This document shows, one piece after another, positions 9,904 through 33,471 of a stretch of DNA of 64,000 bases (position 1 is its first letter; each line of letters begins with the position of its first letter). The translations under genes were made by a program, and so were the position numbers. The stretch covers positions 168,250 through 232,249 of the forward strand of contig NZ_JAHKQH010000026.1 in the NCBI RefSeq assembly GCF_018861025.1, written 5' to 3'. Under the pieces are notes generated by a model that was not told the origin of the DNA, searched no databases, and was given only the letters and a program-made list of their open reading frames with translations. The DNA comes from Psychrosphaera sp. B3R10 (GTDB taxonomy: Bacteria; Pseudomonadota; Gammaproteobacteria; Enterobacterales; Alteromonadaceae).

Positions 9904-10005
9904 TCGTGCATTCCTCATTAAAATAAATTTCATGCCAACAGCGCATGATCGGTTTGTTTATATATAAACGTCGTAGCGTCAGCATTCGTAGAATGATTTG
10001 ATGAG

Positions 10006-10022
10006 GGTTAAAGCAGGGTTAA
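10006..10022 (-). promoter_or_regulatory. TTAACC-N5-TTAACC box, GH13 promoter
   Basis: On the minus strand the sequence is TTAACC CTGCT TTAACC, an 11-bp direct repeat. Eight bases further down lies ATCATT, a weak -10-like hexamer. The downstream gene is the GH13 enzyme at 8482-9903. It is the same motif and spacing as the other boxes of the locus. Confidence 0.55.
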
Positions 10023-10157
10023 GATTTTAAAAAAGAAGGATGTCAGTGAATACTTAGACAATACGATTACGTAGGTGTGTTGATTTATAAGCTGCCGCAA
10101 TAAAGGCAATAGGCGTAACAATATTCGACAAATTTTGTTGTAGAAATTAGGGTTAAC

Positions 10158-10174
10158 TTAACCCGAAATTAACC
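10158..10174 (+). promoter_or_regulatory. TTAACC-N5-TTAACC box without plus-strand gene
   Basis: TTAACC CGAAA TTAACC with an 11-bp period. It points away from the nearest plus-strand gene start (over 1 kb away), so it may be an auxiliary site or chance. Confidence 0.35.
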
Positions 10175-10808: not shown

Positions 10809-11338
10809 ATCAAACCTTTATAAATTAACGTTAAGTGCAGCTAAGAAATCAAATTGTACAAATGATAATTCATCATAGCGAAATTGTTTTTTAAGGAATA
10901 TAGCATGCATACGAATGTTTCATTAATTATAACGTTAAGTGGTGTTAGGGCATGATTAGCTGTATACAAAATGTTAAGTACTAACACAGACAGTAAATTA
11001 ATAAACAACGTTTTGATTGACTAAACATAGTCATTAGACGATTAAAACAAGGCAACGTGTGACCAACAATAAATGTGTTCAAACAATATATGCTATTGTC
11101 ACAAGCTTAAGAGCGCATGTGATCTTTGACCAATCGTTGAACAAAAACGAAGGGGTTATTAAGGACATCCGGCTGAAAGATACCATTGATTTACGGTACC
11201 GATTCACCTTTTTATCAAATCGTTACTTAATTGATTTTGCTGACGTTAAGAAATTTTGTCAGGGAAATAATATATCTACTAGAAACCAAACTTGTCACAC
11301 TGGCATGTTTTACGCTAACCACCATAGGCAGTCTTAAA
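10809..11338. other. Divergent promoter region
   Basis: About 530 bases between the minus-strand lipoprotein and the plus-strand histidine kinase. They contain AACGTTAAG-type repeats (around 10826-10835 and 10930-10940). On the minus strand there are half-site pairs spaced 10 bp instead of 11. A plus-strand frame at 11059-11337 ends two bases before the kinase ATG, but it looks non-protein-like and lacks similarity to a receiver or DNA-binding domain. Confidence 0.5.
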
Positions 11339-12652: not shown

Positions 12653-12680
12653 TTGATAACCCTAAAATAAATGCAAAAGC

Positions 12681-12697
12681 TTAACCGTTATTTAACC
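12681..12697 (+). promoter_or_regulatory. TTAACC box, promoter of GH13 lipoprotein
   Basis: TTAACC GTTAT TTAACC, 11-bp period, 48 bases before the ATG at 12745. The -10-like TTTATA at 12706-12711 follows after 8 bases. Spacing fits an OmpR/PhoB-type activator that replaces the -35 element. Confidence 0.6.
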
Positions 12698-12744: not shown

Positions 12745-14643
12745 ATGAATAAATTTACTTTTGCAATAATTCCGCTTTTAGTAATTGTTATTCCAGGCTG
12801 TAATTCAATATTTTTGCCTAAGTCAGTCACTACCGAAAATTCGAATATCAGTGCGTCCCAACAAGACGACCGTTTTTCAAAGGAGTTTGTCCCTCAATGG
12901 GCGAAAAGTGCCATTTGGTATCAAATTTTCCCCGAACGGTTTAGAAATGGCGACGTAACAAACGATCCACAACTTATCGATGCTAAAGGTGCGGATCCTG
13001 CGGAACCGGCCAAAACTTGGGAACTTCACCCCTGGGGAAGTGACTGGTACAAACTGCAAGAGTATGAAACAACCAATGGTGAACCAGAACTTTGGAAACA
13101 TCTTTTGCGCCGTCGTTATGGCGGTGACTTACAAGGCGTCATTGACCAATTGCCTTATCTACAGGATTTAGGTATAAACGCCATCTATTTAAATCCAATA
13201 TTTGACTCACCATCGTTGCATAAATACGATGCGGTTTCATACCATCATGTCTCACCCAATTTTGGTCCCGATCCGATCGGTGATAGAAAGTTAATAGACC
13301 AAGAAAACCCACTTGACCCAGACTCTTGGGTTTGGACATCAGCCGATGAATTAGCCCTTAAGCTTATTGCAGATGCACATAAAATGGGCATTAAGATCAT
13401 ATTTGATGGTGTTTTTAACCACATGGGAGTTAACAGTTTTGCTTTTAAAAATTTAATGCAACACCAGGAAAAATCACCGTTTAAAGACTGGTTTATTGTG
13501 CATAGTTTTGACGATAAAGAAGCCGGAACCACATTTGATTACGAAGGTTGGTTTGGCGTTAAATCCCTTCCTGAATTTAAAGAAGATGAAAACGGCCTAG
13601 TACAAGGTCCTAAAGATTACGTATTCGCAGCCACCGAACGCTGGATGAATCCAAAGGGGAAAGGCGCCGAATATGGCATCGACGGCTGGCGACTCGATGT
13701 TGCATTTTGTATTGCACATCAGTTTTGGAAAGATTGGCGCGTACATGTGAAATCCCTCAATCCAGATGCATATTTGACCGCAGAGATTGTTGATACACCC
13801 GACAATGTCAAACCTTATATGCAAGGTGATGAGTTTGATGGCGAAATGAATTATAACTTTGCCTTTGCCGCATCTGAATTCTTTTTTAATCCCGAAAACA
13901 TAGCAATAACTGCGACTGAATTTGACCAAAAACTGGCTGAACTTCGTACCTTGTATCCAGCAGGTGTTGCCTACACAGTCCAAAATTTATTTGGTAGCCA
14001 CGATTCAAATCGGATCGGTTCACATATTGTTAATCGCGGTATTGGTAACTTTAGAGATTGGGCTCAATATTTCAACCTCTCTCAAGCTGGCAATAACCGA
14101 GACTACAATGTTCGAAAACCTAACGAACAAGAAATTAATTTACAAAAGTTATTTGTCACCCTGCAAATGACCTATGTCGGTGCTCCAATGATTTATTATG
14201 GAGACGAAGTTGGTATGTGGGGCGGTAATGATCCAGATAGCAGAAAACCAATGATTTGGTCTGACATTAACTATCAGGACGAAATAACCAACCCCGATGG
14301 AAGTCACAGAGCACCCGATAAAGTCAGTGCTAATTTAGAGTTACGGGAACATTATAAAAAAATGATAACACTAAGAAACTCTCATCCGGCATTAAGTGTC
14401 GGCGACTACCAAACTTTAGTCACGGACGATAAAAATGGTATTTTGGCGTTTCAGCGTCAATTTGAAGACGAAACTATCTGGGTGATAATTAACAACTCAG
14501 GGGAAGCTCAAACGGTTAACATTTCGTCTTTATCGTTTAGTAAAGCCCGTAATCTAACTACTCTCGATAATGTGATTGCCAACAACGGCTACATGACAAT
14601 TGCGGTACAACCTAAATCTGGTGCTGTTTTTAAAGTAAAATAA
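12745..14643 (+). CDS. GH13 alpha-amylase family lipoprotein
   Basis: A 632-residue glycoside hydrolase anchored as a lipoprotein (signal ending IVIPGC). The GH13 barrel runs from about residue 52 (IWYQIFPERF) to about 540. Region I is DGVFNH, the nucleophile is Asp318 in DGWRLDVAF, the acid/base is Glu347 in YLTAEIVD, and the third Asp is D420 in GSHDSNR. The overall layout (RYGGDLQGV, INAIYLNPIFDSPSLHKYD) resembles cyclomaltodextrinase/neopullulanase-type enzymes. It therefore probably cleaves imported maltodextrins in the periplasm, though substrate choice is inference. A ribosome-binding site AAGGAA precedes the ATG. The gene follows the kinase gene by about 90 bases but has its own box-type promoter. 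Confidence 0.9.
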   Translation: MNKFTFAIIPLLVIVIPGCNSIFLPKSVTTENSNISASQQDDRFSKEFVPQWAKSAIWYQIFPERFRNGDVTNDPQLIDAKGADPAEPAKTWELHPWGSDWYKLQEYETTNGEPELWKHLLRRRYGGDLQGVIDQLPYLQDLGINAIYLNPIFDSPSLHKYDAVSYHHVSPNFGPDPIGDRKLIDQENPLDPDSWVWTSADELALKLIADAHKMGIKIIFDGVFNHMGVNSFAFKNLMQHQEKSPFKDWFIVHSFDDKEAGTTFDYEGWFGVKSLPEFKEDENGLVQGPKDYVFAATERWMNPKGKGAEYGIDGWRLDVAFCIAHQFWKDWRVHVKSLNPDAYLTAEIVDTPDNVKPYMQGDEFDGEMNYNFAFAASEFFFNPENIAITATEFDQKLAELRTLYPAGVAYTVQNLFGSHDSNRIGSHIVNRGIGNFRDWAQYFNLSQAGNNRDYNVRKPNEQEINLQKLFVTLQMTYVGAPMIYYGDEVGMWGGNDPDSRKPMIWSDINYQDEITNPDGSHRAPDKVSANLELREHYKKMITLRNSHPALSVGDYQTLVTDDKNGILAFQRQFEDETIWVIINNSGEAQTVNISSLSFSKARNLTTLDNVIANNGYMTIAVQPKSGAVFKVK

Positions 14644-14701: not shown

Positions 14702-14721
14702 CTCATTATCGGAGCATGTTG

Positions 14722-14738
14722 TTAACCTATTCTTAACT
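14722..14738 (+). promoter_or_regulatory. TTAACC box, promoter of GH97
   Basis: TTAACC TATTC TTAACT, 11-bp period. A -10-like TTATAA at 14746-14751 follows after 7 bases. The GH97 gene starts 113 bases downstream. Confidence 0.6.
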
Positions 14739-14850: not shown

Positions 14851-16872
14851 ATGAAAAATATTTTTGCCGTCTTAAGTGTGTTTGTCATCGCCGCTTGTTC
14901 ACAAAACGCCCCTTCAAAGTCAGGCCAGCTTTCAGTTGCCTCGCCAGATAAAACATTAACGTTAGAATTTGTTGTCAACAAAAAGGGAGAAATAGGATAC
15001 CAAGTTTTGCATCAAACTAAAGGAATGGTGATTGATACGTCTGCACTTGGGTTTGCTTTTAAAAACATGCCCACGCTCGACCGATTTGAGGTACTAACAA
15101 CTAAACAAAACTCAGTTTTGACTGAGTGGACTTCACCTTGGGGGCAAAATAAGCAACACCAAGATAGTCATAACGAATTGTTGGTCAAGTTTAAAGAGAA
15201 AGACGGTGGCCGGTTACTAAATGTCAGAGTTCGTGCATTTAATGATGGTGTCGGTTTCCGCTACGAATTTCCTCAGCAAGACTCCATGAATGACGTCGTA
15301 ATCATGGACGAAAAAACTCAATTTATATTACCTACGGAGCAGCAAGCATGGTGGATAGAAGCCAATTATGACTCTTACGAAAAACCTTATCAACATACGC
15401 CTCTTTCACAAGTTAAACATGCAAATACCCCTCTGACTATGGTAGCACCAAATGGGTTACATATTAGTATTCATGAAGCGGCTTTAACTGACTACTCTAG
15501 TATGACTCTGATTTCTAAAACTAAAAATACATTAGAAGCCGAACTTGTGCCCTGGGCGAATGGCGAAAAAGTGGTCAAAACCGTTCCTTTTAATACGCCT
15601 TGGCGCACCATACAAATTAGCGATAATGCCGCAGGCCTTGCTAATTCAGACTTAATTTTAAATTTGAACGAACCAAATCAGTTAGCGGATACCAGCTGGA
15701 TTAAGCCAATGACTTACATGGGCATTTGGTGGGAGATCCATTTAGGCGTTGGAACTTGGAATATGGGTGAACGCCATGCAGCAACTACAGAACGCGCCAT
15801 AAAGTACATTGATTTTGCCGTTGAAAATAATGTTGGCGGTGTGTTATTTGAAGGTTGGAACAAAGGTTGGGGACAGTGGGGAAAACGTGAGGCTTATGTG
15901 GTACCAGCCGATGATTTTGACCTCCAAAAAGTGGCTGATTATGCTCGTGAGAAAGGCGTTAAAATAATTGGCCACAACGAAACGGAAGGCCGAATTGAAG
16001 CCTATGAATCCCACGTTGAAGAAATTTTTAAGATCTATACCGATCTTGGTATTAACACCGTAAAAACCGGCTATGTTGCAGAAAAAGGCTTTATTAACGG
16101 CGAGCATCATCAAGGCCAATATGGCGTTAATCACTACCGTAAAATTGTGAAGCTCGCTGCACAATATAAGATTATGATAAATGCCCACGAGCCAATCAAA
16201 GACACAGGTATTCGACGCACATGGCCAAATATGATGACACGTGAAGGTGCCAAAGGCGGTGAATGGAATGCATGGAGTGAAGGGAATTCTGCAGAGTATT
16301 TATTAACACTGCCTTTTACTCGTTTATTAGCAGGGCCTATGGATTATACCCCTGGTATTTTTGATATCGATTACAGTCATTTTGAAGGTAAACGATACAA
16401 TTGGGCAGGCGAACCGCAAACGGGTGACTATCGTGTACATACCACACTTGCCAGGCAATTAGCCGACATGGTGATATTATACAGCCCGTTACAAATGGCG
16501 TCCGATGCCGTTGAAAACTACGAAGATCATCCGGCATTTACATTTATTCGAGACTTAAAAATGGACTTTGAGAGCTCGTTTGTTGTTGATGCAAAAATAG
16601 GTGAATACATTACGGTTGTGCGTCAAACAGGTAACGAATGGTTTATCGGCAGCGGCACCAATAACACCGCCCGCACATTACGATTAACATTGGATTTTTT
16701 GCCAAAAAGCCAAACGTTTATTGCGGAAATTTATCGTGACGATACAGACACCCACTTCGAAACAAATCCAGAGTCTTACAAGATAGAGAAAATAGAAGTG
16801 ACCAGTACCGATGAATTACCTTTAATATTGGCACCCGGTGGTGGTCAAGCAATTCGAATTTCAGCTAAATAA
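14851..16872 (+). CDS. GH97 alpha-glucosidase lipoprotein (SusB-like)
   Basis: A 673-residue lipoprotein (lipobox IAAC) of family GH97, which releases glucose from the non-reducing end of maltodextrins. The N-terminal beta-super-sandwich covers about residues 25-280. The barrel follows (TYMGIWWEIH, GVLFEGWNKGWG) and the C-terminal beta domain begins near 575. Candidate catalytic glutamates are E377 (GHNETEG), E447 (NAHEP) and E471 (GGEWNAW). Their spacing of 70 and 24 residues matches Glu439, Glu508 and Glu532 of Bacteroides SusB, so it should be the inverting alpha-glucosidase type and not the retaining alpha-galactosidase type. It has its own promoter box and terminator. It probably works in the periplasm and feeds the transporter at 21132. 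Confidence 0.95.
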   Translation: MKNIFAVLSVFVIAACSQNAPSKSGQLSVASPDKTLTLEFVVNKKGEIGYQVLHQTKGMVIDTSALGFAFKNMPTLDRFEVLTTKQNSVLTEWTSPWGQNKQHQDSHNELLVKFKEKDGGRLLNVRVRAFNDGVGFRYEFPQQDSMNDVVIMDEKTQFILPTEQQAWWIEANYDSYEKPYQHTPLSQVKHANTPLTMVAPNGLHISIHEAALTDYSSMTLISKTKNTLEAELVPWANGEKVVKTVPFNTPWRTIQISDNAAGLANSDLILNLNEPNQLADTSWIKPMTYMGIWWEIHLGVGTWNMGERHAATTERAIKYIDFAVENNVGGVLFEGWNKGWGQWGKREAYVVPADDFDLQKVADYAREKGVKIIGHNETEGRIEAYESHVEEIFKIYTDLGINTVKTGYVAEKGFINGEHHQGQYGVNHYRKIVKLAAQYKIMINAHEPIKDTGIRRTWPNMMTREGAKGGEWNAWSEGNSAEYLLTLPFTRLLAGPMDYTPGIFDIDYSHFEGKRYNWAGEPQTGDYRVHTTLARQLADMVILYSPLQMASDAVENYEDHPAFTFIRDLKMDFESSFVVDAKIGEYITVVRQTGNEWFIGSGTNNTARTLRLTLDFLPKSQTFIAEIYRDDTDTHFETNPESYKIEKIEVTSTDELPLILAPGGGQAIRISAK

Positions 16873-17475: not shown

Positions 17476-17609
17476 TAATAAATAGATATTACTATTTAAA
17501 AGAATATCAAAGGACAACAAACGCTATAATGAGACCAGTCACACCCTAACGAATTAATATTAATAGATTATATTTAAACACGAATGAGATAAATTATTTA
17601 CAGGAGTTC

Positions 17610-17626
17610 TTAACCAAAAATTAACC
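17610..17626 (+). promoter_or_regulatory. TTAACC box, promoter of multidomain GH13
   Basis: TTAACC AAAAA TTAACC, 11-bp period. The -10-like CATATT at 17635-17640 follows after 8 bases. The gene starts 183 bases downstream, leaving a long untranslated leader. Confidence 0.6.
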
Positions 17627-17808
17627 CCGCCCAACATATTATTGCACCATCTTTTATGAATTGTGCTTGATGTTATACGGACAATTATTATTCATGGAAC
17701 TATCCTCTTGGATAACAATCACTAGTCTGTATCTGTTCATTTCTCTTTATAAGCGGTAACTCAAATTAAAAACAAAATTTGAAAAAAATAATAATTAAGG
17801 GTTTGTTC

Positions 17809-20574
17809 ATGAATATAAAAATAATAATTGGGCTTAGTGTTTTCTCGCTGCTCTGCGGTTGCTCTAGCGACTCTGACTCAAGTGATGACGCCACCAATCA
17901 ACAAGAAACAACAGCAAGTACGCCATTACCAATCACACCTCCCATTGTGGCAAATGACGACGACCGATTTATTGATACTGATCTAGATGGTATCGCAGAC
18001 AAGTTAGATATGTGCAGCGAAACCATAAGCAATGCAGAAGTTGATGCCCAGGGTTGTTTAACGTCAATCCGCATTCAAGCAGAAGATTATATTGAATACC
18101 TTGATTTAACCGATGGGAATGCCGGAGCTCAATACCGCAATGACAACGTGGATATTTTTACTGCGGGTGATACAGACGCCGGATATGCAATTAGAGACAC
18201 CCAAATTGCTGAATGGCTAAGTTATAAAGTCACTTTACCAGAGGGCTATTATCAATTAAACAGCCGTGTTGCCTCCTCAACAGGTGCAGGTCAATACAGT
18301 ATTTATCTCAATGACCAACCAATAGGCTTAGACACAATTAATCATGTTATTGGTGATGATAAAAGTTGGAGTACGCGCCGCGTGACTAAAACTCTAATTT
18401 CAGCCGGTGAGCACACGCTGAAGGTCTTTATCGACGAAGCGGGCGTTGACTTAAACTGGTTGGAATTTGTCGCCACAGGGCCAACCGTGTCATGTGAAGA
18501 TGGTAAACCAACACTTGAAAGCAACTTTGAATGTGAAGTAACACCGTTGACGGCGGAACAATCTAAAGCAACCCAGGACCGGATTTTCTATGAAATGAAT
18601 TTCAGCGTACTTGGCCGCGACAACGCGTTGCAAAAGGTCACAGCGCAACTTGATCACATAACCTCTTTAAACGTTGATACCCTATGGTTAATGCCTCTTC
18701 ATCCTCGTGGTGGCACAACCGAAACGACTTTTAACGTAAACTATTTATTACCTGATAGAGAATACAGCCTAAGCCCTTATGGGATTTCTGACTACCTTAC
18801 TATTGAAGAAAATCTTGGCGATATTAACGATTTACGGTTATTGATAAATGAAGCACACAAACGTGGCGTGTCCGTTATTTTAGATTGGGTGGCAAATCAT
18901 ACATCGTGGAATCATCCTTGGTTATTAAACAAAGACTGGTATACCCAAATAGACAATGTCGTTGTACAACCTCAAGAATTTGCATGGTATGACGTTGCAG
19001 ATCTGAATTTTGACAACTCGCAAATGCGTGCTGCAATGATCGACAGTATGATTTACTGGATTAACATTGGCGTAGATGGATTCCGATGTGATTACGCTGA
19101 GGGGGTTCCAGATGATTTCTGGCAAGCCGCCATCAGCCAAATCAGAGACGTTAACCCCAACGCCATTATGTTGGCTGAAGGCACTGTTAACCATTTAAAC
19201 TTAGGGTTTGATTTAACCTATTCGTGGGAATCGAACACCAGTGTTAAAGACGCCATTGAAACTGCAGATGCGACGCTAGTAACCGCTCGTCAAGAATTAC
19301 AAAACTCAACCTACAACATGCAAGCGGGTACACATTTACTACGATACTCAACAAATCATGACCTATCTGCGTGGGAAGAAAATCCAATTCAAATCGCTTG
19401 CGTTCAAATAGAAGAAGATTGCACAGCATTTACCGAACTTGCACAACAAGGTGCACTTGCACAATTTGCATTGCATTTATTTTACGGTGACGTGCCATTA
19501 ATTTACAGTGGCCAAGAAGTTGGTGAAGAAAAAAACATCAGTTTCTATGGCGATGACATCATTGATTGGACCAAAAACGCAGGCGTATTAGCCGAGTATC
19601 AACAGTTACTTTCTTATTATTCTGATTCAACAATTACCAAGTTAGGGATTGAAAAGTCCTATCCAGATGACACAGTTGTCGCTGTGCAAAAAACACATGG
19701 CGACAAACGGCTGGTAATGTTAACCAATGTCCTAAAAACAGAAAACACCTTCATTATTCCAGAAGGTTTACAGGGAGATTATGTCAATGCGTTAACTGGT
19801 CAAACTGTGGTTTTAGATACCAATTTTGTCTTAAGTGCGTTTGAGTATGTATTACTTACTCAAGATTATGCTGAAGCGGGTCCAGCCTACGGAGATACTC
19901 AATTGTATATTCGCAGCGATTTTAATGGTTGGTCAGCTTATGATCCTATGATTTATGTTGGGAATAAAACCTACATAGGTGCCGCAAATATCAGTGCTAC
20001 TGGCAGTTTCTATTTCAAATTTGCTAATGCTGAATGGAACTTCCGAATTGGCGCCGAAGGCATAGCACCACTTGACCAACCTTTAGTTTTGTCAATTCTT
20101 ACGGATGATTATGACCCAGCGCAAACACTGCAAATTGACGACATAGGACTTTATGTCTTTACGTTAAATACCCAAGATCCAAACGCACCGGTATTAACCA
20201 TAAGCAAAGATATTACAACTTACGCTGGTGTTCCACTTTACATCCGTGGCTTTGATGATATTTGGGACACATCTAGACCCATGACTTACTTTGGGGCTGG
20301 TTATTACGCTTTTGATATTATCGCAAATCAAAATGCCGACTTGAGTTTCAGCAAGTACTTTAAAATAGCCTCAGAAGCCTGGAGCAATCCCAATGCAGGC
20401 GGCGCACAAATTGTATTAAACGGCGACTTTGTGGTAGTACAAGAAGTTGACGATGCAATGAGCTTAGGTTTAACTGAGCAGACTAAATTGCGTATTATTT
20501 ATCATGCAATTGACGACACCACAAACGAAGGTGAAGTTACGGTATTATCTTTACCACTTCCCCCTTCGGATTAG
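17809..20574 (+). CDS. Multidomain GH13 amylase lipoprotein with CBM6-like and C-terminal modules
   Basis: A 921-residue lipoprotein (LLCGC, then Ser-Ser-Asp) that probably degrades starch at the cell surface. Domains in order: a Ser/Asp/Thr-rich linker; a calcium-binding thrombospondin-3-like segment DTDLDGIADKLDMC (about 54-67); a CBM6-like domain (IRIQAEDYIEYLD to about 213); the GH13 barrel (about 255-650); and two different C-terminal beta modules (about 694-802 and 805-921). Catalytic residues are present: D428 in GFRCDYAEG, E457 in MLAEGT and D518 in TNHDLS. I start at the ATG at 17809, preceded by AAGGG. An upstream TTG at 17779 would add ten basic residues. The C-terminal modules are closely similar to those of the protein at 26293. 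Confidence 0.9.
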   Translation: MNIKIIIGLSVFSLLCGCSSDSDSSDDATNQQETTASTPLPITPPIVANDDDRFIDTDLDGIADKLDMCSETISNAEVDAQGCLTSIRIQAEDYIEYLDLTDGNAGAQYRNDNVDIFTAGDTDAGYAIRDTQIAEWLSYKVTLPEGYYQLNSRVASSTGAGQYSIYLNDQPIGLDTINHVIGDDKSWSTRRVTKTLISAGEHTLKVFIDEAGVDLNWLEFVATGPTVSCEDGKPTLESNFECEVTPLTAEQSKATQDRIFYEMNFSVLGRDNALQKVTAQLDHITSLNVDTLWLMPLHPRGGTTETTFNVNYLLPDREYSLSPYGISDYLTIEENLGDINDLRLLINEAHKRGVSVILDWVANHTSWNHPWLLNKDWYTQIDNVVVQPQEFAWYDVADLNFDNSQMRAAMIDSMIYWINIGVDGFRCDYAEGVPDDFWQAAISQIRDVNPNAIMLAEGTVNHLNLGFDLTYSWESNTSVKDAIETADATLVTARQELQNSTYNMQAGTHLLRYSTNHDLSAWEENPIQIACVQIEEDCTAFTELAQQGALAQFALHLFYGDVPLIYSGQEVGEEKNISFYGDDIIDWTKNAGVLAEYQQLLSYYSDSTITKLGIEKSYPDDTVVAVQKTHGDKRLVMLTNVLKTENTFIIPEGLQGDYVNALTGQTVVLDTNFVLSAFEYVLLTQDYAEAGPAYGDTQLYIRSDFNGWSAYDPMIYVGNKTYIGAANISATGSFYFKFANAEWNFRIGAEGIAPLDQPLVLSILTDDYDPAQTLQIDDIGLYVFTLNTQDPNAPVLTISKDITTYAGVPLYIRGFDDIWDTSRPMTYFGAGYYAFDIIANQNADLSFSKYFKIASEAWSNPNAGGAQIVLNGDFVVVQEVDDAMSLGLTEQTKLRIIYHAIDDTTNEGEVTVLSLPLPPSD

Positions 20575-21131: not shown

Positions 21132-22457
21132 TTACTTAGGAATAACGGCATTGGCTGCCAATTTATCCGATGGTGTTGCGCAATAAATACCGTAAAATGC
21201 AATATAAACAAAACAAAGAACAGGTACGACAAACGCATATTGTAAACCAATCGCATCGGCGATACTCCCCTGAATCAACGGTAAAATCGCGCCGCCAACG
21301 ATGGCTAAGCACAAAATGCCAGACCCTTGACTGGTGTGCTTTTTTAATCCAGTAATTGCCAAGCTGAAGATGGTGGGGAACATTATTGAGTTGCATAAAC
21401 CAACCAATAATATTGCCCACATGGCTAAATACCCCGTAGAGAACATAACGCACAACAACAAAAGCACTGCGCACATTGCGTTAAATGACAATAATTTTGC
21501 AGCTGATATTTTCTGCATTACTGCAGCACCGATAAATCGGCCGACCATCGCGCCGCCAAAATAATAGGCTATATAATTAGCAGCTTGGGACTCTTCTAAA
21601 CCCGCAATAGAATCCATCGACAAGAAACTAATGAGAAAACTGCCGATCCCAACCTCAGCACCGACATAAACAAATATTCCGACTGCTCCTAAGGTGAGCT
21701 TGGGGAACTGCCACGCCGAACCTTCACTTTGTTTTTGGTCGCCATCAACGTTGTTTGCGCCTAATTTAGGTAAATTAATGAAGGAAAATATAACGGCTAA
21801 ACAAAACAGAACGCCGGCCAAAAGCAAATAAGGTATTTGTATAGCCAATATGTCATTTTCTGTTATCGACGACAAAATTAGCCAACTGCCAAAAAATGGT
21901 GCAAGCGTGGTACCCAATGAATTAAACGCCTGCGAAAGTGTTAGTCGAGACGAGGCCGTTTTTTCTGCACCTAACACACTAACAAATGGATTAGCGGAAA
22001 CTTGCAATAGTGTAACTCCCGTCGCGAGAACAAAAAGCGCCCCCAAAAAGAAGTTATAAGACGAATAACTGGCTGCCGGATAAAATAGTAAACATCCTAA
22101 ACAGGCTATTAGTAATCCTGTGACGATGCCCTTTTGAAAGCCAATTTTACTAACAAGCTTGCCCGCAGGTATCGATGAAATAAAATAGGCCCCAAAAAAG
22201 CAAAATTGAACCAACATGACTTGTGTATAATTTAAGGCGAATAACCCCTTTAGATAGGGAATTAAGATATCGTTGAGGCAAGTAATAAAACCCCACATAA
22301 AAAACAACGCGATCAATGACCTTAGCGCAAATTTGTAGTTTTTATCCTCCAGTGAATTGGCTGAATTTTGAGCGTTTCCCAAACTAAAAGTTTGCCCTTC
22401 TATTAACTGCCCTTTACCTGCTGATTCATTCAATATTGCCTGTTCTGGTACTGCCAT
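21132..22457 (-). CDS. FucP/GluP-family sugar:proton symporter
   Basis: A 441-residue major-facilitator inner-membrane transporter with about 12 hydrophobic segments. It belongs to the fucose/galactose/glucose:H+ symporter group, as shown by [19 protein letters not shown] in helix 1, the loop [13 protein letters not shown], and [12 protein letters not shown] in helix 5. About 45 polar residues precede helix 1. Within this locus it most likely takes up glucose made in the periplasm by GH97 and GH13 enzymes. The product could also be another hexose. No TTAACC box is visible upstream, so it may be regulated differently from its neighbours. Confidence 0.88.
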
Positions 22458-22787: not shown

Positions 22788-25700
22788 TTAAAAAGTGTAA
22801 TCAATGCCCATAAAGTAGTTACGGCCAAAGTATTGAATATTACCGGTCTTAGACCTGTCTCCATAATAAGAGCGGTTAGCTTCATCCGTTAAGTTATTCA
22901 CCGATACGAGTACATTAAACTTGTCGGTAATATCGTAAGACGCCTGCCAATCAATAATGGTTTCTTCAGTAACATAAGCGATATTGCCCGATGTACCGCT
23001 CACTCTGCCCAAATATTCAGAGCGGTAGCGGGTACTAATGCGAGTATCAAAACCCTCATAGTCATAAAACAAGGTCGCTGAATAAACTCTAGGAGATAAT
23101 CCTTCTAGTGGTACGCCCACATCTTCACGACCTGTGCCCACATCTAGATTACGAGTGATCTCACTTTCGGTATACGAAAAGCTTCCAGAAAAACCAAAAC
23201 CAGACCACGCACCTGGTAACATTGAATAAACCTGCGTATAACCAAGTTCAACTCCACGAATGTAACCTCCTTGGTCGTTGTTTACCGTCATGATCATGTC
23301 ACCAGGTTCAACTGCACGACCAATGTCTGAATACACTGGAACATCAATGCCATTGCCGGCAAAGTCATAGTTTTGTAGCGTACGAGTTTCGGTAAATGAC
23401 TCGATGTCTTTATTAAACAAAGCAACAAATGCATTACCATCTGTTTCTACAAAATAATATTCGTAGGTAAAGTCATATTGAGTTGCTAAAAAGGGTTCAA
23501 TAAATGGATTGGTACCCATTGCCATATTAACGACATTTTTACCATCGCGAGCTCGGTCATATTCATATGAATAACCACCACTTACCGCCATTTCTGTCAG
23601 TTGTGGACGAGCCATAACTTTTGCCGCTGCAAACTTAAAGTACTGATTATCAGTAATGCCAAAGGTTAAATTTATTGACGGTAAGATGTTGGTATACGAA
23701 TGCTCAAGCGTACGGTACAAGTAATCAGAGCTTTCACCACCTACATCGTCAACAATCAAATCTCCAGTGCCAACAACTTCCAATACGGTTTGACCGTTGT
23801 TATCTCTAATTGGGTCGCCGTTGTCATCGTAGGCAACTGTTTGAGAATTTGGCGCCTCAACAACACCAGTTGCTTCTTGTGTTGTTTTAATAACACGCAA
23901 ACCAATATTACCAGTTAATGCATGCCCGACAATTTCGGTATCTAAATTAGCAAGTAAATAGCCCGCTTGAATGTCTTCTTCAATAAATCTATCAGCTCCT
24001 ATAGACCAAGAAGCAGCAACCCCCCATACATCAACACCGTCTGTCGATAGCGGATTGCCATTTGCATCAACTGCCCATTTGTTACTGATTTCATCAGGGT
24101 CAAATGCTAAAAAGGCTGGTAGCGTAGAAAATTCGCCGCTTAACTGTACTGCCGTTACTTCATTAGCTGATAGCTTATAAGGCTGAAAACGAGCCACTTC
24201 TTGACCATTTTGATAGCTAATATAATTACCAGCACGCATTACGTCTTGATGGATAAGGTTTCTATGGACACCATTTTCATAATGACCAGGGCCACCGTAA
24301 GACCACATGCTTCTTAATGAATTATGTTGACGGTTCGAGACTCGGAACCCAGCTTCAACAGTGCTAATGATACTAAAATCAAGTTCGTACACTAGGTCGA
24401 GCTTAAAAGCGTCTGCCTGATTTTCTTCAAAATGTGGGAATTTAGCGTTATTGACCACCATCATTTTATTGATGTCGGTGAAATCCACTAACTGACCTGC
24501 TTCATTTGTTATAGAAACTTCAGGGATTTTTAAACCATTTGTTTGATAATTAACAACTAAATCCGTATCAACTTTAGGCGTAACCGCATTTGCGTCGTCA
24601 AACATCATCAGATTCATTTCAGCGTCGACAAAATCTTGTGACGCTTTCGAATGAGAGAAGTCTATGGCAATCGTTAAGTCGTCAAATAACCACTCTGCGT
24701 TTAAGCCAACCGTAATCGTATCGCTGTAACGGCTGCTATTATCTGACGATGTTCTGATATTAAGTGGATTAGAGCCGCCAATACGTTGACTATTTTGACA
24801 AGGAACCGACACCGTACCAGCCGTTAACTGGTCACACGTACCAGGCTCATATGTAGCAAACGGTGTGTAATAACCACTGTGATATTCACCACCAATTATC
24901 GAATAACCATCAGTGTCATTTCCCACAACAACAGGGTCAATTAAATCAACGGAATTGTTAATGTCATTTGATACGATAGACCCTAGACCACTAATAAAAA
25001 TGCCGCGTTCCCACAATTTTGAATCAAATTTCGAATAGAAAACATCTGCTTTTAACGTAAAGTTATCGGTTGGTTGCCATGCGATTGCTGCCATGATCCC
25101 GTTACGTGTATCTTCACCACCACGGGTCATTAATTCAAAACCATCGGTATACGAAATACAATTAACGTTTTCATAGCTCGGTTGTATGTCTTCTCCTTCC
25201 GCGAGACAATCCGTCAAACCAGGGATGCCATCTAAACGAACATTTTGATAGGAATACGCACCACTTAGGAACTGGTTTGACACTGATGGTGCAAACAAAC
25301 TAGCCCCACCAATCGCAACACCTAAAGTATCGTCTAAAAATTTACCTTTATATGAAAAGCTTAATCTATGCCCAACCGACGCAGCGTCAGGATGTTCACC
25401 TGAAAGTGAATTTCCAGTTAACTGAGCATTAACATGAAACTGGCTGTCATCTTCCATATCCAAAGGATTTGACGTACCTAAATCAACCGTACCGGCCACA
25501 CCGCCTTCTATTAGTGAGGCTTTTTGAGACTTGTACACCATCGCGCTGCTTATTAATTCAGAAGGAAACTGTGAAAACTCTACCGACCGGCCACCGTCTG
25601 ACGATACCTGCTCACGCCCGTTCATAGTAGTGAATACATAATTGCCAGATAAACCACGAATATTCAATTCACTTGATTGACCACCCGTTCTAACTGCTGT

Positions 25701-26030
25701 TACTCCCGGTAAACGAGTTAATGCATCAGCAATGGATAAGTCAGGCAATGCACCTAAGTCATCTGCTGTTACGACATCGACTATCGTATCTGAAAATCGC
25801 TTGATGTTAATTGATTCAACCATACTGCGTCGAAACGATCCGGTCACCTGGATAACTTCGATATCGCTGTTTTCATCACTCTTTACTTCACTCTCAACTT
25901 TACTCGCGACTTCTGTTTGACTAATAGTTGAAATTTTACTTTTATCATCGACTTCAACTGATATAGTTTGAAAACTCATACCCGTGAGTATTAACGACAT
26001 CGTAAGTTGATTAAGCTTAAAATTGTGCAT
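22788..26030 (-). CDS. TonB-dependent receptor for maltodextrins
   Basis: Outer-membrane active transporter of about 1080 residues. After the signal sequence comes an acidic spacer and a TonB-box region (IEVIQVTGSFRRSM). The plug domain follows (DLGALPDLSIADALTRLPGV, then GQSSELNIRGL), and then the 22-strand barrel ending in the terminal aromatic YFMGIDYTF. Large size and the plug style match the TonB receptors of sugar loci in Alteromonadales and Xanthomonadales (MalA-like). The substrate is inferred from its neighbours. I start at the ATG at 26030, preceded by AGGA; the longest frame from 26102 would bury the signal peptide. It is divergent from the pullulanase-like gene, and both promoters carry a TTAACC box. 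Confidence 0.9.
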   Translation of the reverse strand: MHNFKLNQLTMSLILTGMSFQTISVEVDDKSKISTISQTEVASKVESEVKSDENSDIEVIQVTGSFRRSMVESINIKRFSDTIVDVVTADDLGALPDLSIADALTRLPGVTAVRTGGQSSELNIRGLSGNYVFTTMNGREQVSSDGGRSVEFSQFPSELISSAMVYKSQKASLIEGGVAGTVDLGTSNPLDMEDDSQFHVNAQLTGNSLSGEHPDAASVGHRLSFSYKGKFLDDTLGVAIGGASLFAPSVSNQFLSGAYSYQNVRLDGIPGLTDCLAEGEDIQPSYENVNCISYTDGFELMTRGGEDTRNGIMAAIAWQPTDNFTLKADVFYSKFDSKLWERGIFISGLGSIVSNDINNSVDLIDPVVVGNDTDGYSIIGGEYHSGYYTPFATYEPGTCDQLTAGTVSVPCQNSQRIGGSNPLNIRTSSDNSSRYSDTITVGLNAEWLFDDLTIAIDFSHSKASQDFVDAEMNLMMFDDANAVTPKVDTDLVVNYQTNGLKIPEVSITNEAGQLVDFTDINKMMVVNNAKFPHFEENQADAFKLDLVYELDFSIISTVEAGFRVSNRQHNSLRSMWSYGGPGHYENGVHRNLIHQDVMRAGNYISYQNGQEVARFQPYKLSANEVTAVQLSGEFSTLPAFLAFDPDEISNKWAVDANGNPLSTDGVDVWGVAASWSIGADRFIEEDIQAGYLLANLDTEIVGHALTGNIGLRVIKTTQEATGVVEAPNSQTVAYDDNGDPIRDNNGQTVLEVVGTGDLIVDDVGGESSDYLYRTLEHSYTNILPSINLTFGITDNQYFKFAAAKVMARPQLTEMAVSGGYSYEYDRARDGKNVVNMAMGTNPFIEPFLATQYDFTYEYYFVETDGNAFVALFNKDIESFTETRTLQNYDFAGNGIDVPVYSDIGRAVEPGDMIMTVNNDQGGYIRGVELGYTQVYSMLPGAWSGFGFSGSFSYTESEITRNLDVGTGREDVGVPLEGLSPRVYSATLFYDYEGFDTRISTRYRSEYLGRVSGTSGNIAYVTEETIIDWQASYDITDKFNVLVSVNNLTDEANRSYYGDRSKTGNIQYFGRNYFMGIDYTF

Positions 26031-26145
26031 GTGAATAATTCCTAAACTTCGCTTATCTTGCATTGATTTGTTGTATTCATCCACGATATTAAAAGAACCC
26101 AATAAAGTGGTATGTAAGCATTTAAATCGAGCATAAACAGCAAGT

Positions 26146-26162
26146 GGTTAAGGAAAGGTTAA
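26146..26162 (-). promoter_or_regulatory. TTAACC box, promoter of TonB receptor
   Basis: Minus strand TTAACC TTTCC TTAACC, 11-bp period. The -10-like TTTATG (26137-26132) follows after 8 bases. Confidence 0.6.
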
Positions 26163-26208
26163 GGTGAATTGGCGACATTTATTAACTCGTCAAATAATAA
26201 TTTTTGTC

Positions 26209-26225
26209 TTAACCACACCTTAACC
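26209..26225 (+). promoter_or_regulatory. TTAACC box, promoter of pullulanase-like gene
   Basis: TTAACC ACACC TTAACC, 11-bp period. The -10-like TAATAA (26233-26238) follows after 7 bases. The gene starts 68 bases downstream of the box. Confidence 0.6.
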
Positions 26226-26292: not shown

Positions 26293-29200
26293 ATGAACAT
26301 GAATTTACGAATACAAAGTAGAATATTCGCCACGTGTGTAATTAGTAGTACCCTCTTATCATTATTTGGCTGTGACGTGTCAAATGAAGAAGGATTGAAA
26401 AGCGAATTTCAAGCCACTTTACAAACCCCACTGACATGCCGCTTCCCAGATACTATCGCTGCAGATAGTTTTGGTGAGCCAATTTTAGATGAGAACGCTA
26501 ACACCAGTTGTGAACGGGTAGAGTTAGCCTGCGAAAATGCACTTTATGACCATGACTCACATTCATGCCTTCCATTGGCTCGTCATCCACTCGCACCACT
26601 TGAAGTGGCTGAAGCGATACCAGAAGACGGCAACTGGGCAACCGTATTTTACTGGCGCGATGAATTTGCCAATGTCGACCCACAGACCTTACTTTCGCCG
26701 CCTGACAACGAAAATAAATGGGTAATTCATGCATGGAACAACGACGTTTGTAATGCATGGGACCCTGATTATCAACAACCAGGAAACAGCAACAATTACC
26801 AAGAAGTTGAAAAAATATATTGGACAACTTCATGGACCGGCGGACTACTTCCTGACGGCTTTGATGAAAATTACGGTTTATTTTGGAAATTTAAATTACT
26901 GCCACTTGATGACGTAAATGAAGAAGGTGTTCCGCGTCGTACCGACTGTGTTCATTACATTGTGCACGACATAAACAACGATATACGTGGCCATATTGAT
27001 GACTTAAGAGGCGACGTTGGCAATAATCCAACCGCTAGCTTATATAATCCTGACAATATGAATTACATTCATAATGAGCTCTCTACACCAATTACCGGCT
27101 CTAGTATTAACCCTTATTACGTGCCACCTGGGGAATTAGCCACAAGCGTTCGCCGCGTAGATCCTAAGTGGTATGCACACTGGATAGATACAAGCACCAT
27201 TTTGTTAGGTGACAGTGGATTAGAAAACTCGTTTGGTCCTATGACCCAAAGTGTGAAACTATTTTACGGTCCAGGCGATATTCGTTTCTTCCCAGGCGAC
27301 GGTTACCGAGGAGTTGATTTTATTGAATTTACTCGACAAGGTGACAGTTCATTATTAACACCAGAACAAGCTGCATCATCTCTCGCCGCAGCAAGTAATT
27401 TTTCAGTATTTACCACCGACACTGACATTACACCTGAATTAGCCAAAACTATTTTGCAAGGCACAATCACTGTAGTAGCTGAAAACGCCGACCAAGAAAT
27501 GATTGCAGCAACAGGTGTGCAAACCGCAAAAATTATCGACGCGCTTTATACGCAAGGCAACAACGACGCAAATGAAGCAACTCTTGGCGTGATTTATGAA
27601 GACGGCAAAGTTAAAAACGCTCTTTGGGCGCCAACGGCACAAAGTGTGATTATAAATATTTATAACGATGTATTTGTCGACGGGGATTATGAGCTATTTA
27701 AATCTCAAGAAATGACGTTTGATATCCTTACCGGGATCTGGTCATTTGAAGCTTCAGCAGCCGACGTAGACCAAAAGTTATTCCAATACGAAGTTAGTGT
27801 TTTTCATTCAGAGACTGGTAAATTCGAATCCCTTGATGTAGTCGACCCATATTCAGTGAATCTGACAACCAATACGGAATATTCAAAATACGTAAACTTA
27901 GATGATGCGAACTTATTGCCAAGCGGCTGGACGCAAAATACAGCTGTAAACATGGTTAATCCCGAGGACTACGTATTTTATACGGGCCATGTGCGTGACT
28001 TCAGTATCTTAGATGAGTCAACAACGCCAGCACATCGAGGTAAATTTTTAGCCTTTACTGATAGCACAAGCTCTCCTGTGCAACATCTTCAATCATTGGC
28101 CGATGCAGGTATTACGCACGTGCAACTGATGCCGATTAACAATATTGCGAACATTGACGACCGAGCAGAATCTTCGGTGAACTTAGGCAATACGGTAAGT
28201 AAGTTATGCGGTAAAAAACCAGGCGCTGAGGTATGCTTAGATATTGGCGAAAACAGCACAGAGACCTTAGGCGACATTTTAGCCGGCCTAGATTCGACAT
28301 CAGACAAATCTCGTGACTTGTTATCAGAATTAGTAAACATCGACTCGTACGACTTTGGTTACAACTCCAATCTATTTACAGCACCAGAAGGTATTTATGC
28401 CACAAACTCTGCTGACTCGTCTCGGATAATCGAATTACGTGAAATGGTTCAGGCTTTACATGACATGGGGTTGAAAGTCTCTCTTGATTTTGACTTTAGC
28501 CATACCAACGATTCAGGCTTATTGGACGACTCGATATTAGACCAAGTCGTTCCAGGGTATTATCATCGACGCGACCCGCAAACAGGACGTATTTTAGATG
28601 TAACAAGTGCCGAAGATACCGCATCTGAACACGCCATGATGACTAAGCTCATTGCCGATACATTGGTCACTTATAGCAAACATTTTAATATTGACGCTTT
28701 CCACTTAACTGCTATTGACTTGATTCCAAGTGACAGCTTGCTAGCCATTCGGAATGCAGTTAAAGCCGTAAACGATAATACCTATATTTATGGCTCTGCC
28801 AACAATATAGCGCTTTCGACTTTTACTGCAGCCAATGCAACAACCCTTACAAATACAGAAGTCGGATTGGTTAATGCCAATATGCAGGATGCGGTGACAA
28901 GTGCAGTTCTATTTAATCAATCGCAGTTTATCGATGAAATAGATAAATTGCGCATTTCTATGGTGGGTAATATTGCAAACTACAGATTGGAAAATAAAAT
29001 GGGCAATATAAATCAGGCAAAAGACCTTTATACGAATAGTCTAGTTCAAGACCCTGCCGAGATCGTCAATACCATTGCAACGGTTAATTCAGAAACGTTA
29101 TTTGATGCGCTACAGTATAACTTGGCGGGTGATTTTTTACCTGACGAACGTATTCGTGCCCACCAAATCTCTATGGCAATCCCTTTGTTAAGCCAAGGTA

Positions 29201-30915
29201 TACCGTCATTGCAAATGGGCAGCGATTTATTGCGCTCAAAATCAATGTCAACTCTAAGTAACACTGGCGGTGACTGGATAAACCGCGTGGACTTTACACA
29301 ACAATCCAACAACTGGAATGTCGCTTTACCAATTATGTTAAGCGATGAAGTTAAAGCCAAATCCCTGTTAATGGATAGCAATATTCAGGTTTATTCTGAC
29401 AATATAAATAGCAGTGCGGAACTTGTTAAAGAGTTTTTACAGATCCGTAAATCAAGTCCACTATTTCGCTTAACAACAGCCGATGACATCATTGACCGAG
29501 TTGGCTTCCACAATACTGGCCAAAACGCGTTGCATAATTTAATTGCAATGAGTATTGATGATGGAAAAGGTTGTGTCGTCAGTAAACTTAATTATGAAGG
29601 TTTATGTGATGATGACGAGCAACGAGTTGACTTAGACCCTAGCGTTGATGCCATTTTTGTTGTTATTAATGGCGGATTAAATCAACAAACATTAAGTTTA
29701 GACATTGTGGGTGAATTTGAGCTGCATTCAATTCAGCAAAGTTCACATGACGCGGCAACCCAAAAGGCGTTTTACCAAACGACTAGCTTTGGTGGCCAAT
29801 TGGTCGTTCCAGCGTTAACAACAGCCGTATTTATTAAACCACAGGTTGTTGAGCAAGGTACCGGCTACAGCGCTTTTGCTAGTGTCGGACTTCCTTCGGT
29901 AACCCCTTACAACAATCACACTATCTATCTGCATAACGACGCAAATGAGAGTAATGATTTACCGGTTTTCGAGTACATGGGTGATGGTATATATGAGCTG
30001 ACAGTTACGCTTAATGTAGGTGCTCACAACTTTACTATTGGCGATTATGATCTATCTGAATTTAACGTTGGTGGTGATATCATAATCGAACTCGATACGG
30101 GAATTGTGATTGGCCAGTCAGCAATAACCAATACTATTAATATTACCGCGGCCGGCCGCTATACCTTTAGTTTAAATGCATTAGACCCCAAAATGCCGAC
30201 ACTTACTGTGACTGGTGGTTCGACGCAACCGAGTTACGGAGAAACAGAGTTGTTAATTCGCGGTGATTTTAATGGCTGGTCTGAAGACAATCCAATGATT
30301 TATGTCGGCAACAATACCTATGTAGGTACGGTCGATATCACAGCAACAGGCAACTTTTATTACAAGTTTGCTAATGCCGCATGGGACTTCAGAATTGGTA
30401 ACGAGTTTCAAACGACGTTAAATGAGTCTATAAATATGTCGATTCTTACCGATTCGTACGACCCTGCACCAACGTTGCAAATTGACGATATTGGCCTGTA
30501 CTTCTTTGTGATAAATGCAAATAACCCTGCCGCTCCTATCGTAACGATAAGTAAAGAAGTGCCGACCTATGCGGGTGAAATCTTATACGTCCGAGGTTTT
30601 GATTCGATATGGGATACAAGTCGACCTATGACATACTATGGCGCTGGATATTACGCACTGGACATACTTGCTGTTCAAAATGAAGACTTAACATTTGACA
30701 AGTTCTTTAAGATTGCCGCTGAATCTTGGAGCAATCCTAATTCAGGCGGCGCACAAGTTACCTTAAACGGTGGATTTGTTGCGACGCAAACCGTGGATGA
30801 CGCCATTACATTAGCGTTAGATGAAGAGACACAATTACGAATTATTTATCACGCCATTGATGATGTAAATAATCTCGGGGAAATTGCTGTTCAAGCCCTA
30901 GCAGTGAATGAATAA
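26293..30915 (+). CDS. Pullulanase-like lipoprotein without catalytic residues
   Basis: A 1540-residue lipoprotein (LSLFGC, Asp at +2) with the architecture of type I pullulanase. It has a CBM41-like domain (about 140-240: WVIHAWNND, FWKFKLLPL, CVHYIVHD), a CBM48-like domain (about 435-540: NALWAPTAQSV), a GH13 domain (about 550-1110) and beta modules to the end. Pullulanase landmarks persist (GYYHRRDPQTGR, ASEHAMM, DLLRSKSM, WINRVDF), but the active site is gone. Region I reads DFDFSH (Ser736 for Asn). The nucleophile position is Thr806 in IDAFHLTAID, the acid/base is Ser835 in IYGSANN, and the third Asp is Asn932 in TVNSETLF. The reading frame is intact over 4.6 kb, so this looks like a conserved non-enzymatic role, probably starch binding. 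The last 225 residues are closely similar to those of the 17809 protein. Confidence 0.85.
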   Translation: MNMNLRIQSRIFATCVISSTLLSLFGCDVSNEEGLKSEFQATLQTPLTCRFPDTIAADSFGEPILDENANTSCERVELACENALYDHDSHSCLPLARHPLAPLEVAEAIPEDGNWATVFYWRDEFANVDPQTLLSPPDNENKWVIHAWNNDVCNAWDPDYQQPGNSNNYQEVEKIYWTTSWTGGLLPDGFDENYGLFWKFKLLPLDDVNEEGVPRRTDCVHYIVHDINNDIRGHIDDLRGDVGNNPTASLYNPDNMNYIHNELSTPITGSSINPYYVPPGELATSVRRVDPKWYAHWIDTSTILLGDSGLENSFGPMTQSVKLFYGPGDIRFFPGDGYRGVDFIEFTRQGDSSLLTPEQAASSLAAASNFSVFTTDTDITPELAKTILQGTITVVAENADQEMIAATGVQTAKIIDALYTQGNNDANEATLGVIYEDGKVKNALWAPTAQSVIINIYNDVFVDGDYELFKSQEMTFDILTGIWSFEASAADVDQKLFQYEVSVFHSETGKFESLDVVDPYSVNLTTNTEYSKYVNLDDANLLPSGWTQNTAVNMVNPEDYVFYTGHVRDFSILDESTTPAHRGKFLAFTDSTSSPVQHLQSLADAGITHVQLMPINNIANIDDRAESSVNLGNTVSKLCGKKPGAEVCLDIGENSTETLGDILAGLDSTSDKSRDLLSELVNIDSYDFGYNSNLFTAPEGIYATNSADSSRIIELREMVQALHDMGLKVSLDFDFSHTNDSGLLDDSILDQVVPGYYHRRDPQTGRILDVTSAEDTASEHAMMTKLIADTLVTYSKHFNIDAFHLTAIDLIPSDSLLAIRNAVKAVNDNTYIYGSANNIALSTFTAANATTLTNTEVGLVNANMQDAVTSAVLFNQSQFIDEIDKLRISMVGNIANYRLENKMGNINQAKDLYTNSLVQDPAEIVNTIATVNSETLFDALQYNLAGDFLPDERIRAHQISMAIPLLSQGIPSLQMGSDLLRSKSMSTLSNTGGDWINRVDFTQQSNNWNVALPIMLSDEVKAKSLLMDSNIQVYSDNINSSAELVKEFLQIRKSSPLFRLTTADDIIDRVGFHNTGQNALHNLIAMSIDDGKGCVVSKLNYEGLCDDDEQRVDLDPSVDAIFVVINGGLNQQTLSLDIVGEFELHSIQQSSHDAATQKAFYQTTSFGGQLVVPALTTAVFIKPQVVEQGTGYSAFASVGLPSVTPYNNHTIYLHNDANESNDLPVFEYMGDGIYELTVTLNVGAHNFTIGDYDLSEFNVGGDIIIELDTGIVIGQSAITNTINITAAGRYTFSLNALDPKMPTLTVTGGSTQPSYGETELLIRGDFNGWSEDNPMIYVGNNTYVGTVDITATGNFYYKFANAAWDFRIGNEFQTTLNESINMSILTDSYDPAPTLQIDDIGLYFFVINANNPAAPIVTISKEVPTYAGEILYVRGFDSIWDTSRPMTYYGAGYYALDILAVQNEDLTFDKFFKIAAESWSNPNSGGAQVTLNGGFVATQTVDDAITLALDEETQLRIIYHAIDDVNNLGEIAVQALAVNE

Positions 30916-30944: not shown

Positions 30945-30975
30945 AGGGCATCAACTAAAAAGTTGATGCCCTTTT
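30945..30975 (+). terminator. Strong rho-independent terminator
   Basis: AGGGCATCAACT (30945-30956), loop AAAA, AGTTGATGCCCT (30961-30972), then TTT. It separates the pullulanase-like gene from the regulator gene. Confidence 0.88.
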
Positions 30976-31103: not shown

Positions 31104-31781
31104 ATGAATTTACGTGTCCTATTTGTTGAAGACGATAAAAATCTCGCTATCTCAATTGTTCATTATTTGGAATTAAATTCCATTGTTTGTGATTATTGTA
31201 GCGACGGGAATCTAGCGTTAAACCTACTGAAAACCAACAAATACGATGTCATCATAAGTGATGTAAACATGCCTGAAATGGATGGATATACGTTTTGTTC
31301 AAAAGTGAGAGAACAGGGATACGATGTTCCACTAATGATGTTAACTGCATTGACTGAAATTGACGATAAGTTAACAGGATTTGACAGTGGTGCCGATGAT
31401 TACCTGACCAAACCCTTTGAAATGAAAGAGCTTCTTGCCCGTATTTTTTCTCTAGCCAAACGCCGAAGCGGCAACATGAAGCTATTAAAAATTAAAGAGT
31501 TAGGTCTAGAGCTTAATTTAGATAACCACATTGCATTTCGCGACAATATAAAATTAAACTTGCCGCCGTCGTGTTGGATAATTTTAGAAACACTCGCCCG
31601 AGCATATCCAAAACCCGTTAAAAAATCCGATATCGAATTTGCGATTTGGGGTGATGAACTCCCGGACAGCAACAGCTTAAAAGTCCATATTCACGGATTA
31701 CGAAAAAATTTAGACAAGCCATTTGAATCTCCTATTTTACACATCATTACCGGTTTTGGTTTTGAGTTAAGGCCAGCATAA
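31104..31781 (+). CDS. OmpR-family response regulator of the starch locus
   Basis: A 225-residue two-component regulator. The receiver domain (1-120) has the acidic pair EDD near residues 9-11, phospho-acceptor Asp53 in IISDVNMPEMDG, Thr in MLTAL and Lys in LTKPF. The C-terminal winged helix (about 128-222) ends in the recognition segment SLKVHIHGLRKNL and the wing IITGFGFEL. No kinase is adjacent: downstream lies a separate spondin operon with its own pair. I infer that its kinase is the orphan at 11339 and that it binds the TTAACC direct repeats across the locus. Confidence 0.88.
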   Translation: MNLRVLFVEDDKNLAISIVHYLELNSIVCDYCSDGNLALNLLKTNKYDVIISDVNMPEMDGYTFCSKVREQGYDVPLMMLTALTEIDDKLTGFDSGADDYLTKPFEMKELLARIFSLAKRRSGNMKLLKIKELGLELNLDNHIAFRDNIKLNLPPSCWIILETLARAYPKPVKKSDIEFAIWGDELPDSNSLKVHIHGLRKNLDKPFESPILHIITGFGFELRPA

Positions 31782-32039
31782 TAACGATAAATACATTAGG
31801 CTAAACCTATCGTAGTGTTAGATTTTAGCCTGCCATCGCACGCCGGTTTATCTTCTATTTGTATTTATTGTTAGTTCCTCCAACCTCCAATTCCCTTAAT
31901 ATTTGTTCTGTAAAGACATAAATATTGAGTTGTGACCAAAAAACACCATCTTCTTTATCAAATTGTGATTTTGTCGTGATACTTTTGGGATAAATTCGAT
32001 TCATGATTGTTAGGGTCAAAACTAACAAGAGAAAAGAAC

Positions 32040-33468: not shown

Positions 33469-33471
33469 ACT

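What the first reader, a model, noticed from the sequence alone, without database searches (positions are those of the whole stretch)
26293..30915. Full-length pullulanase homologue with every catalytic residue replaced
The GH13 domain aligns with type I pullulanase across long stretches (GYYHRRDPQTGR, ASEHAMM, DLLRSKSM, WINRVDF). Yet the nucleophile Asp is Thr806, the acid/base Glu is Ser835, the transition-state Asp is Asn932 with its preceding His replaced by Val, and the region I Asn is Ser736. The frame is open for 1540 codons, and the binding modules (CBM41-like, CBM48-like, C-terminal modules) are retained. It has its own promoter box and is divergent from the TonB receptor. This points to selection for a non-enzymatic function. 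I propose a surface starch-binding protein that plays the part of SusE/SusF in a gammaproteobacterium.
Basis: partly seen in the sequence, partly recalled or inferred. Interest (0 to 1): 0.78.

Follow-up and report, generated by a model that had tools for sequence, protein, structure and literature searches.

The report
Dead pullulanase beside starch uptake receptor
A bacterial starch-use gene cluster keeps a full-length debranching-enzyme look-alike whose cutting residues are gone, one of a small family of such proteins; it likely holds starch on the cell surface for the uptake receptor encoded next to it, a helper role known mainly from a different bacterial group.

Summary

Best reading: a pullulanase turned surface starch-binding partner of a TonB receptor in an Alteromonadaceae-type gammaproteobacterium, working like SusE/SusF without being their homologue. 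Binding, surface location and receptor contact are inferred.

The parts
26293..30915 (+). dead pullulanase-fold gene, 1540 aa, predicted lipoprotein
26293..26373 (+). signal peptide and lipobox, Cys27 (codon 26371-26373); slot-specific start GC[DN]xSNE
   Evidence: sequence; motif in 7 of 7 dead and 7 of 9 intact slot proteins, 0 of 104 others
26623..27162 (+). CBM41-like N-terminal domain, residues 111-290 (by fold on PulA; borders approximate)
   Evidence: intact sisters hit PF03714
27172..27540 (+). Pullulanase_N2 domain, residues 294-416
27583..27855 (+). CBM48-like domain, residues 431-521 (under Pfam cut-off)
27970..29301 (+). GH13 barrel, residues 560-1003 (borders approximate), catalytic residues lost
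28498..28500 (+). S736 in place of region-I Asn
28708..28710 (+). T806 in place of nucleophile Asp
28795..28797 (+). S835 in place of acid/base Glu
29083..29088 (+). V931-N932 in place of transition-state His-Asp
29302..29838 (+). pullulanase C domain, residues 1004-1182
29896..30225 (+). C-terminal module 1 (SusE/X25-like fold), W-K-W lost
30226..30564 (+). C-terminal module 2 (SusF/X25/AmyP-SBD-like fold), W1329-K1358-W1364 kept
30565..30906 (+). C-terminal module 3 (Amy703 N-domain-like fold), W1440-K1473-W1479 kept
30945..30972 (+). terminator-like stem-loop after the gene
   Evidence: such sites not above shuffles in number
26147..26163 (+). direct-repeat box GTTAAG-N5-GTTAAG, exact
26208..26224 (-). 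second exact box, opposite strand
22788..26102 (-). TonB-dependent receptor, divergent partner
17779..20574 (+). GH13 amylase, predicted lipoprotein, catalytic motifs intact; modules 2-3 copy at 19879-20571 (start more likely ATG 17809)
21132..22457 (-). GluP-type glucose/galactose MFS transporter
14851..16872 (+). GH97 glycosidase
12745..14643 (+). GH13, cyclomaltodextrinase/neopullulanase-like
8482..9933 (-). GH13 amylase
31104..31781 (+). OmpR/PhoB-type response regulator; next gene in all three dead loci
11231..12652 (+). possible sensor kinase (HisKA under cut-off)
17609..17625 (-). one-mismatch box upstream of amylase
14721..14737 (-). one-mismatch box upstream of GH97
12680..12696 (-). 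one-mismatch box upstream of GH13
10007..10173 (.). two one-mismatch boxes (10007 + and 10157 -) upstream of amylase 8482-9933

Best explanation
The gene encodes a pullulanase-fold protein that has lost its catalytic residues, is predicted to be a lipoprotein on the outer surface, and likely binds starch there and passes it to the divergently encoded TonB receptor. Shown: the sequence losses, one dead clade sister to intact proteins in the same receptor-linked place, conservation of the protein while silent sites are saturated, co-occurrence with the receptor, shared direct-repeat boxes, and two C-terminal modules shared with the nearby amylase. Predicted: the fold and the lipid anchor. Inferred: export by the type II route used by PulA, starch binding by the CBM41-like domain and C-terminal modules 2 and 3, and contact with the receptor. 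In this model the lipoprotein amylase (SusG-like role) cuts starch held by the dead protein, products pass through the receptor, and the GH97, GH13 and GluP genes finish the work inside.
For: Fold on PulA. Seven dead members, 113 of 113 other listed relatives intact. One dead clade, SH-aLRT 100. Silent sites 27-33% identical against proteins 61-71%. Receptor orthologue divergent to the gene in 3 dead and 5 intact loci; same 7 of 295 genomes hold both. Exact boxes between the two genes in 7 of 8 slot genomes; 7 boxes with at most one mismatch in the window against 0.58 +- 0.78 in shuffles, all between genes of the starch cluster. SusF/SusE/X25/AmyP-SBD-like modules, W-K-W kept in module 2 (7 of 7) and module 3 (5 of 5). 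Amylase carries the same two modules at 64% identity. GspD above cut-off in the genome.
Against: No binding, location or contact was measured. Module 1 lost W-K-W in 7 of 7; module 3 is absent from 2 of 7 members. Many former active-site positions are lost, so the old cleft may bind no sugar. Sequence profiles do not find SusE/SusF, CBM41 or X25 in the window protein. The seven co-occurring genomes span only four genera and are not independent. Two of the three dead loci are from metagenome-assembled genomes.
Confidence: 0.6

Rival explanations
1. It is a non-catalytic subunit that forms a hetero-oligomer with an active debranching enzyme or with the amylase and steers it, as plant ISA2 does with ISA1.
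For: ISA2 has lost catalytic residues, binds ISA1 and is long conserved (PMC12510319, passages). All 8 slot genomes hold another intact pullulanase, and the amylase shares two modules.
Against: The constant partner is the TonB receptor; the intact pullulanases of the window's genome lie on other contigs, and intact sisters hold the same receptor-linked place.
Confidence: 0.16
2. It still acts on alpha-glucans through an unusual catalytic set.
For: A GH13 amylase group with His in place of the transition-state Asp is active (BmaN1, PMC5347038, abstract). The transition-state Asp survives in 3 of 7 members.
Against: BmaN1 keeps nucleophile and acid/base; here both are lost in 7 of 7, with the neighbouring Arg and His, and the replacements vary between members.
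Confidence: 0.06
3. It is a surface sensor: it binds starch and signals to the two-component system rather than feeding uptake.
For: An OmpR/PhoB-type regulator is the next gene in 3 of 3 dead loci and a possible kinase lies in the cluster.
Against: Intact sisters in the same place also pair with the receptor; the regulator is not adjacent in 4 of the 5 intact loci examined; an outer-surface protein has no shown path to a kinase.
Confidence: 0.08
4. It is a decaying enzyme gene.
For: Intact pullulanases are present elsewhere; long stem branch, 0.59 changes per column; the barrel is slightly less conserved than the whole in dead pairs.
Against: Full-length frames in the members with DNA at hand, protein far more conserved than silent sites, new residues fixed in 7 of 7 (D687, D734, S736, F937), conserved boxes and partner.
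Confidence: 0.02

Closest known systems
Klebsiella PulA (type I pullulanase, surface lipoprotein exported by the type II secretion system)
   Same: Fold along residues 100-1199, domain order, lipobox; the genome has GspD. PulA export: PMC7857515, passages.
   Different: Catalytic residues lost; three extra C-terminal modules; gene paired with a TonB receptor.
Intact slot pullulanases of Catenovulum and Saccharobesus
   Same: Same length, N-terminal motif, divergent TonB receptor, boxes; sister clade.
   Different: All catalytic residues present; module 1 keeps W-K-W; no copy of the modules on an amylase at E 1e-60.
Bacteroides SusE, SusF, SusD and SGBPs of outer-membrane utilisomes
   Different: Main body is a dead GH13 enzyme; no SusE/SusF or SusD sequence match; gammaproteobacterial.
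Plant ISA2
   Same: Debranching-enzyme fold conserved without catalytic residues (PMC12510319, passages).
   Different: Plastid partner of ISA1; no receptor, no lipoprotein.
BmaN1-type GH13 amylases
   Same: GH13 with a replaced catalytic residue.
   Different: Keep nucleophile and acid/base and are active (PMC5347038, abstract).

Membership tests
type I pullulanase (active GH13_13 enzyme) | PulA fold with N2 and C domains | tested here: met
type I pullulanase (active GH13_13 enzyme) | catalytic Asp, Glu, Asp | tested here: not met
   T806, S835, N932
type I pullulanase (active GH13_13 enzyme) | score above NCBIfam cut-off | tested here: not met
   TIGR02103 646 against 697.6, TIGR02104 263.4 against 504.5 bits
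SusE/SusF | sequence match to PF16411 | tested here: not met
   no match to E 0.1 in the window protein; an intact sister has one under cut-off, 23.8 against 27.5 bits
SusE/SusF | tandem starch-binding beta modules | tested here: met
SusE/SusF | binds starch at the cell surface | not testable with these tools
   needs purified protein and cell assays
SusD | SusD family sequence | tested here: not met
   no SusD family among Pfam matches to E 0.1
SusD | dedicated one-to-one partner of a TonB receptor | tested here: met
   genomic linkage only: 7 of 7 receptor-bearing genomes of 295, adjacent and divergent
ISA2-type non-catalytic debranching subunit | debranching fold without catalytic residues, conserved over time | tested here: met
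ISA2-type non-catalytic debranching subunit | complex with an active paralogue | not tested

The most novel reading that the evidence does not exclude
A gammaproteobacterial lineage independently built its own Sus-type outer-membrane starch machine by switching off a receptor-linked pullulanase and keeping it as the dedicated starch-holding partner of a TonB receptor, while a neighbouring surface amylase came to carry the same binding modules and does the cutting.
Probability: 0.45. Interest if true: 0.8.

Novelty: new variant of a known kind. Interest (0 to 1): 0.66.

Why it matters
[quoted passage not shown] A conserved dead enzyme tied to one such receptor is a concrete, testable candidate for a convergent partner. 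Dead and intact sisters in the same gene place also form a natural matched pair for asking what a surface pullulanase does beyond cutting.

Tried and rejected
Chance or sequencing artefact: rejected, since seven distinct members share the losses. Pseudogene: rejected. Active GH13 of the BmaN1 kind: unlikely. Sigma-70 promoter: not above shuffles. The exact-box count alone is unremarkable genome-wide (2 hits, and 2 for the reversed control pattern, in the window's genome); its placement and the one-mismatch count are what matter; with two mismatches the excess is weaker (15 against 8.1 +- 2.8) and some hits lie inside genes. Redundancy as the cause of the loss: all 8 slot genomes, intact ones included, keep another intact pullulanase (for the window's own copy), so redundancy does not separate the two groups. 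No dN/dS ratio was computed because silent sites are saturated. Families missing from the structural hit lists were not ruled out. Literature: eight searches of an open-licence library listed no report of a dead pullulanase as a TonB-linked binding protein; most subscription journals are not held, so this does not show that none exists.

Limits of the counts: of 512 relatives, the 120 listed were examined; P0002, a shorter record of the window protein, was left out. One search drew 295 genomes from a larger family, and slot genes were told from other pullulanases by score (1307.8 bits and more against 996.3 and less) and by the adjacent receptor. One search used 42 chosen rows. One search used three dead and five intact loci, with barrel borders approximate. 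One search used rows of a chosen 18-row alignment for module 1. Absence of the module copy from intact genomes was seen at E 1e-60 only, and for two neighbouring GH13 genes directly.

Full report

A FAMILY. A protein search listed 120 of 512 relatives. Besides the window's own protein, six further distinct ones at 56-76% identity share the losses. Nucleophile Asp is T, S or N and acid/base Glu is S or T in 7 of 7; the Arg and the transition-state His are gone in 7 of 7; the transition-state Asp remains in 3 of 7; the region-I Asn is Ser in 7 of 7. The other 113 listed relatives keep Arg, Asp, Glu, His and Asp in 113 of 113; at the region-I Asn 16 of them have Pro. Of 91 barrel positions at least 97% conserved in those 113, the dead clade keeps 57 in all members, loses 20 (at most one member keeps them) and varies at 14. 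Four positions fixed anew in all seven are D687, D734, S736 and F937.

ORIGIN. In a 42-row tree the seven dead proteins form one clade (SH-aLRT 100). It is sister to nine intact proteins, among them Catenovulum and Saccharobesus sequences; the sixteen together have support 100, the nine alone 93. The dead stem is long (0.59 changes per column), branches inside are ordinary. One loss explains the data.

SELECTION. Between three dead loci, 4-fold degenerate sites are 27-33% identical, which is saturation, while proteins are 61-71% and barrels 59-70% identical. In ten intact pairs the barrel is more conserved than the whole in 10 of 10, by 1-10 points; in dead pairs it is 1-2 points less in 3 of 3. 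Constraint on the barrel is relaxed but far from absent.

PARTNERSHIP. The divergent neighbour is a TonB-dependent receptor of TIGR01782 type. Its orthologue lies divergent to the gene in the Paraglaciecola and Aestuariibacter dead loci, both metagenome-assembled (69% identical), and in five intact loci (55-58%). Among 295 family genomes the receptor at E 1e-290 or better occurs in seven, exactly those with this gene: two dead, five intact. The next receptor is far off, 837 against 1351 bits. The seven span four genera and are not independent. The start GC[DN]xSNE is in 7 of 7 dead and 7 of 9 intact slot proteins and in none of the other 104 listed. Paraglaciecola belongs to Alteromonadaceae, Gammaproteobacteria, and the genome holding what appears to be that locus is of the window's own family, so the window's host is inferred to be of that family.

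REGULATION. GTTAAG-N5-GTTAAG, an 11-base direct repeat of the kind OmpR/PhoB-type regulators use (recalled), occurs exactly twice in the window's genome, both times between receptor and dead gene, one per strand. The reversed control pattern also has two hits there, so position is the point. With one mismatch the window has seven, against 0.58 +- 0.78 in shuffles. All seven lie between the ORFs: at 10007 and 10157 (amylase 8482-9933), 12680 (GH13 12745), 14721 (GH97 14851), 17609 (amylase 17779), 26147 and 26208. Over eight slot genomes 15 of 25 exact boxes lie between the two genes; seven genomes have two or three there, and G138 has no exact box, only one with a mismatch. A response regulator (31104-31781) is the next gene in all three dead loci; that it reads the boxes is inferred.

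HOW IT LIKELY WORKS. The cluster has a cyclomaltodextrinase/neopullulanase-like GH13, a GH97, a lipoprotein amylase, a TonB receptor, a GluP transporter and this protein. That is the part list of Bacteroides Sus (recalled) with the dead pullulanase where SusD/E/F would stand. PulA is a lipoprotein exported by a type II system (PMC7857515, passages), and GspD is above cut-off in the window's genome and in both other dead genomes. I infer that the protein sits on the surface, holds alpha-glucan with its N- and C-terminal modules, and works with receptor and amylase, as glycan-binding lipoproteins do with SusCD (PMC7618045, passages). Whether it is nearer a SusE/F tether or a SusD-like lid cannot be settled; the modules favour a tether.

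LIMITS. Nothing here measures binding, activity, location or contact.

Noticed in passing
10007-17625 and 26147-26224: A direct-repeat box (GTTAAG-N5-GTTAAG) ties the starch genes together; likely the site of the neighbouring OmpR/PhoB-type regulator.
   Followed up: partly
10248-10808 (-): A 186-aa protein without Pfam match recurs beside the regulator and kinase homologues in L007 and L044.
   Followed up: no
32007-35840 (+): Two spondin-domain proteins followed by a second response regulator and a histidine kinase.
   Followed up: no
38786-40222 (-): Alginate lyase (PF08787, 201.5 bits) close to the starch cluster.
   Followed up: no
G000:C16:321577-324627 and several loci: More distant receptors (about 42-47% identical) lie within some kilobases of pullulanase matches in other genomes (for example G119, G155, G169, G223), so receptor-pullulanase linkage may be older than this slot.
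   Followed up: no
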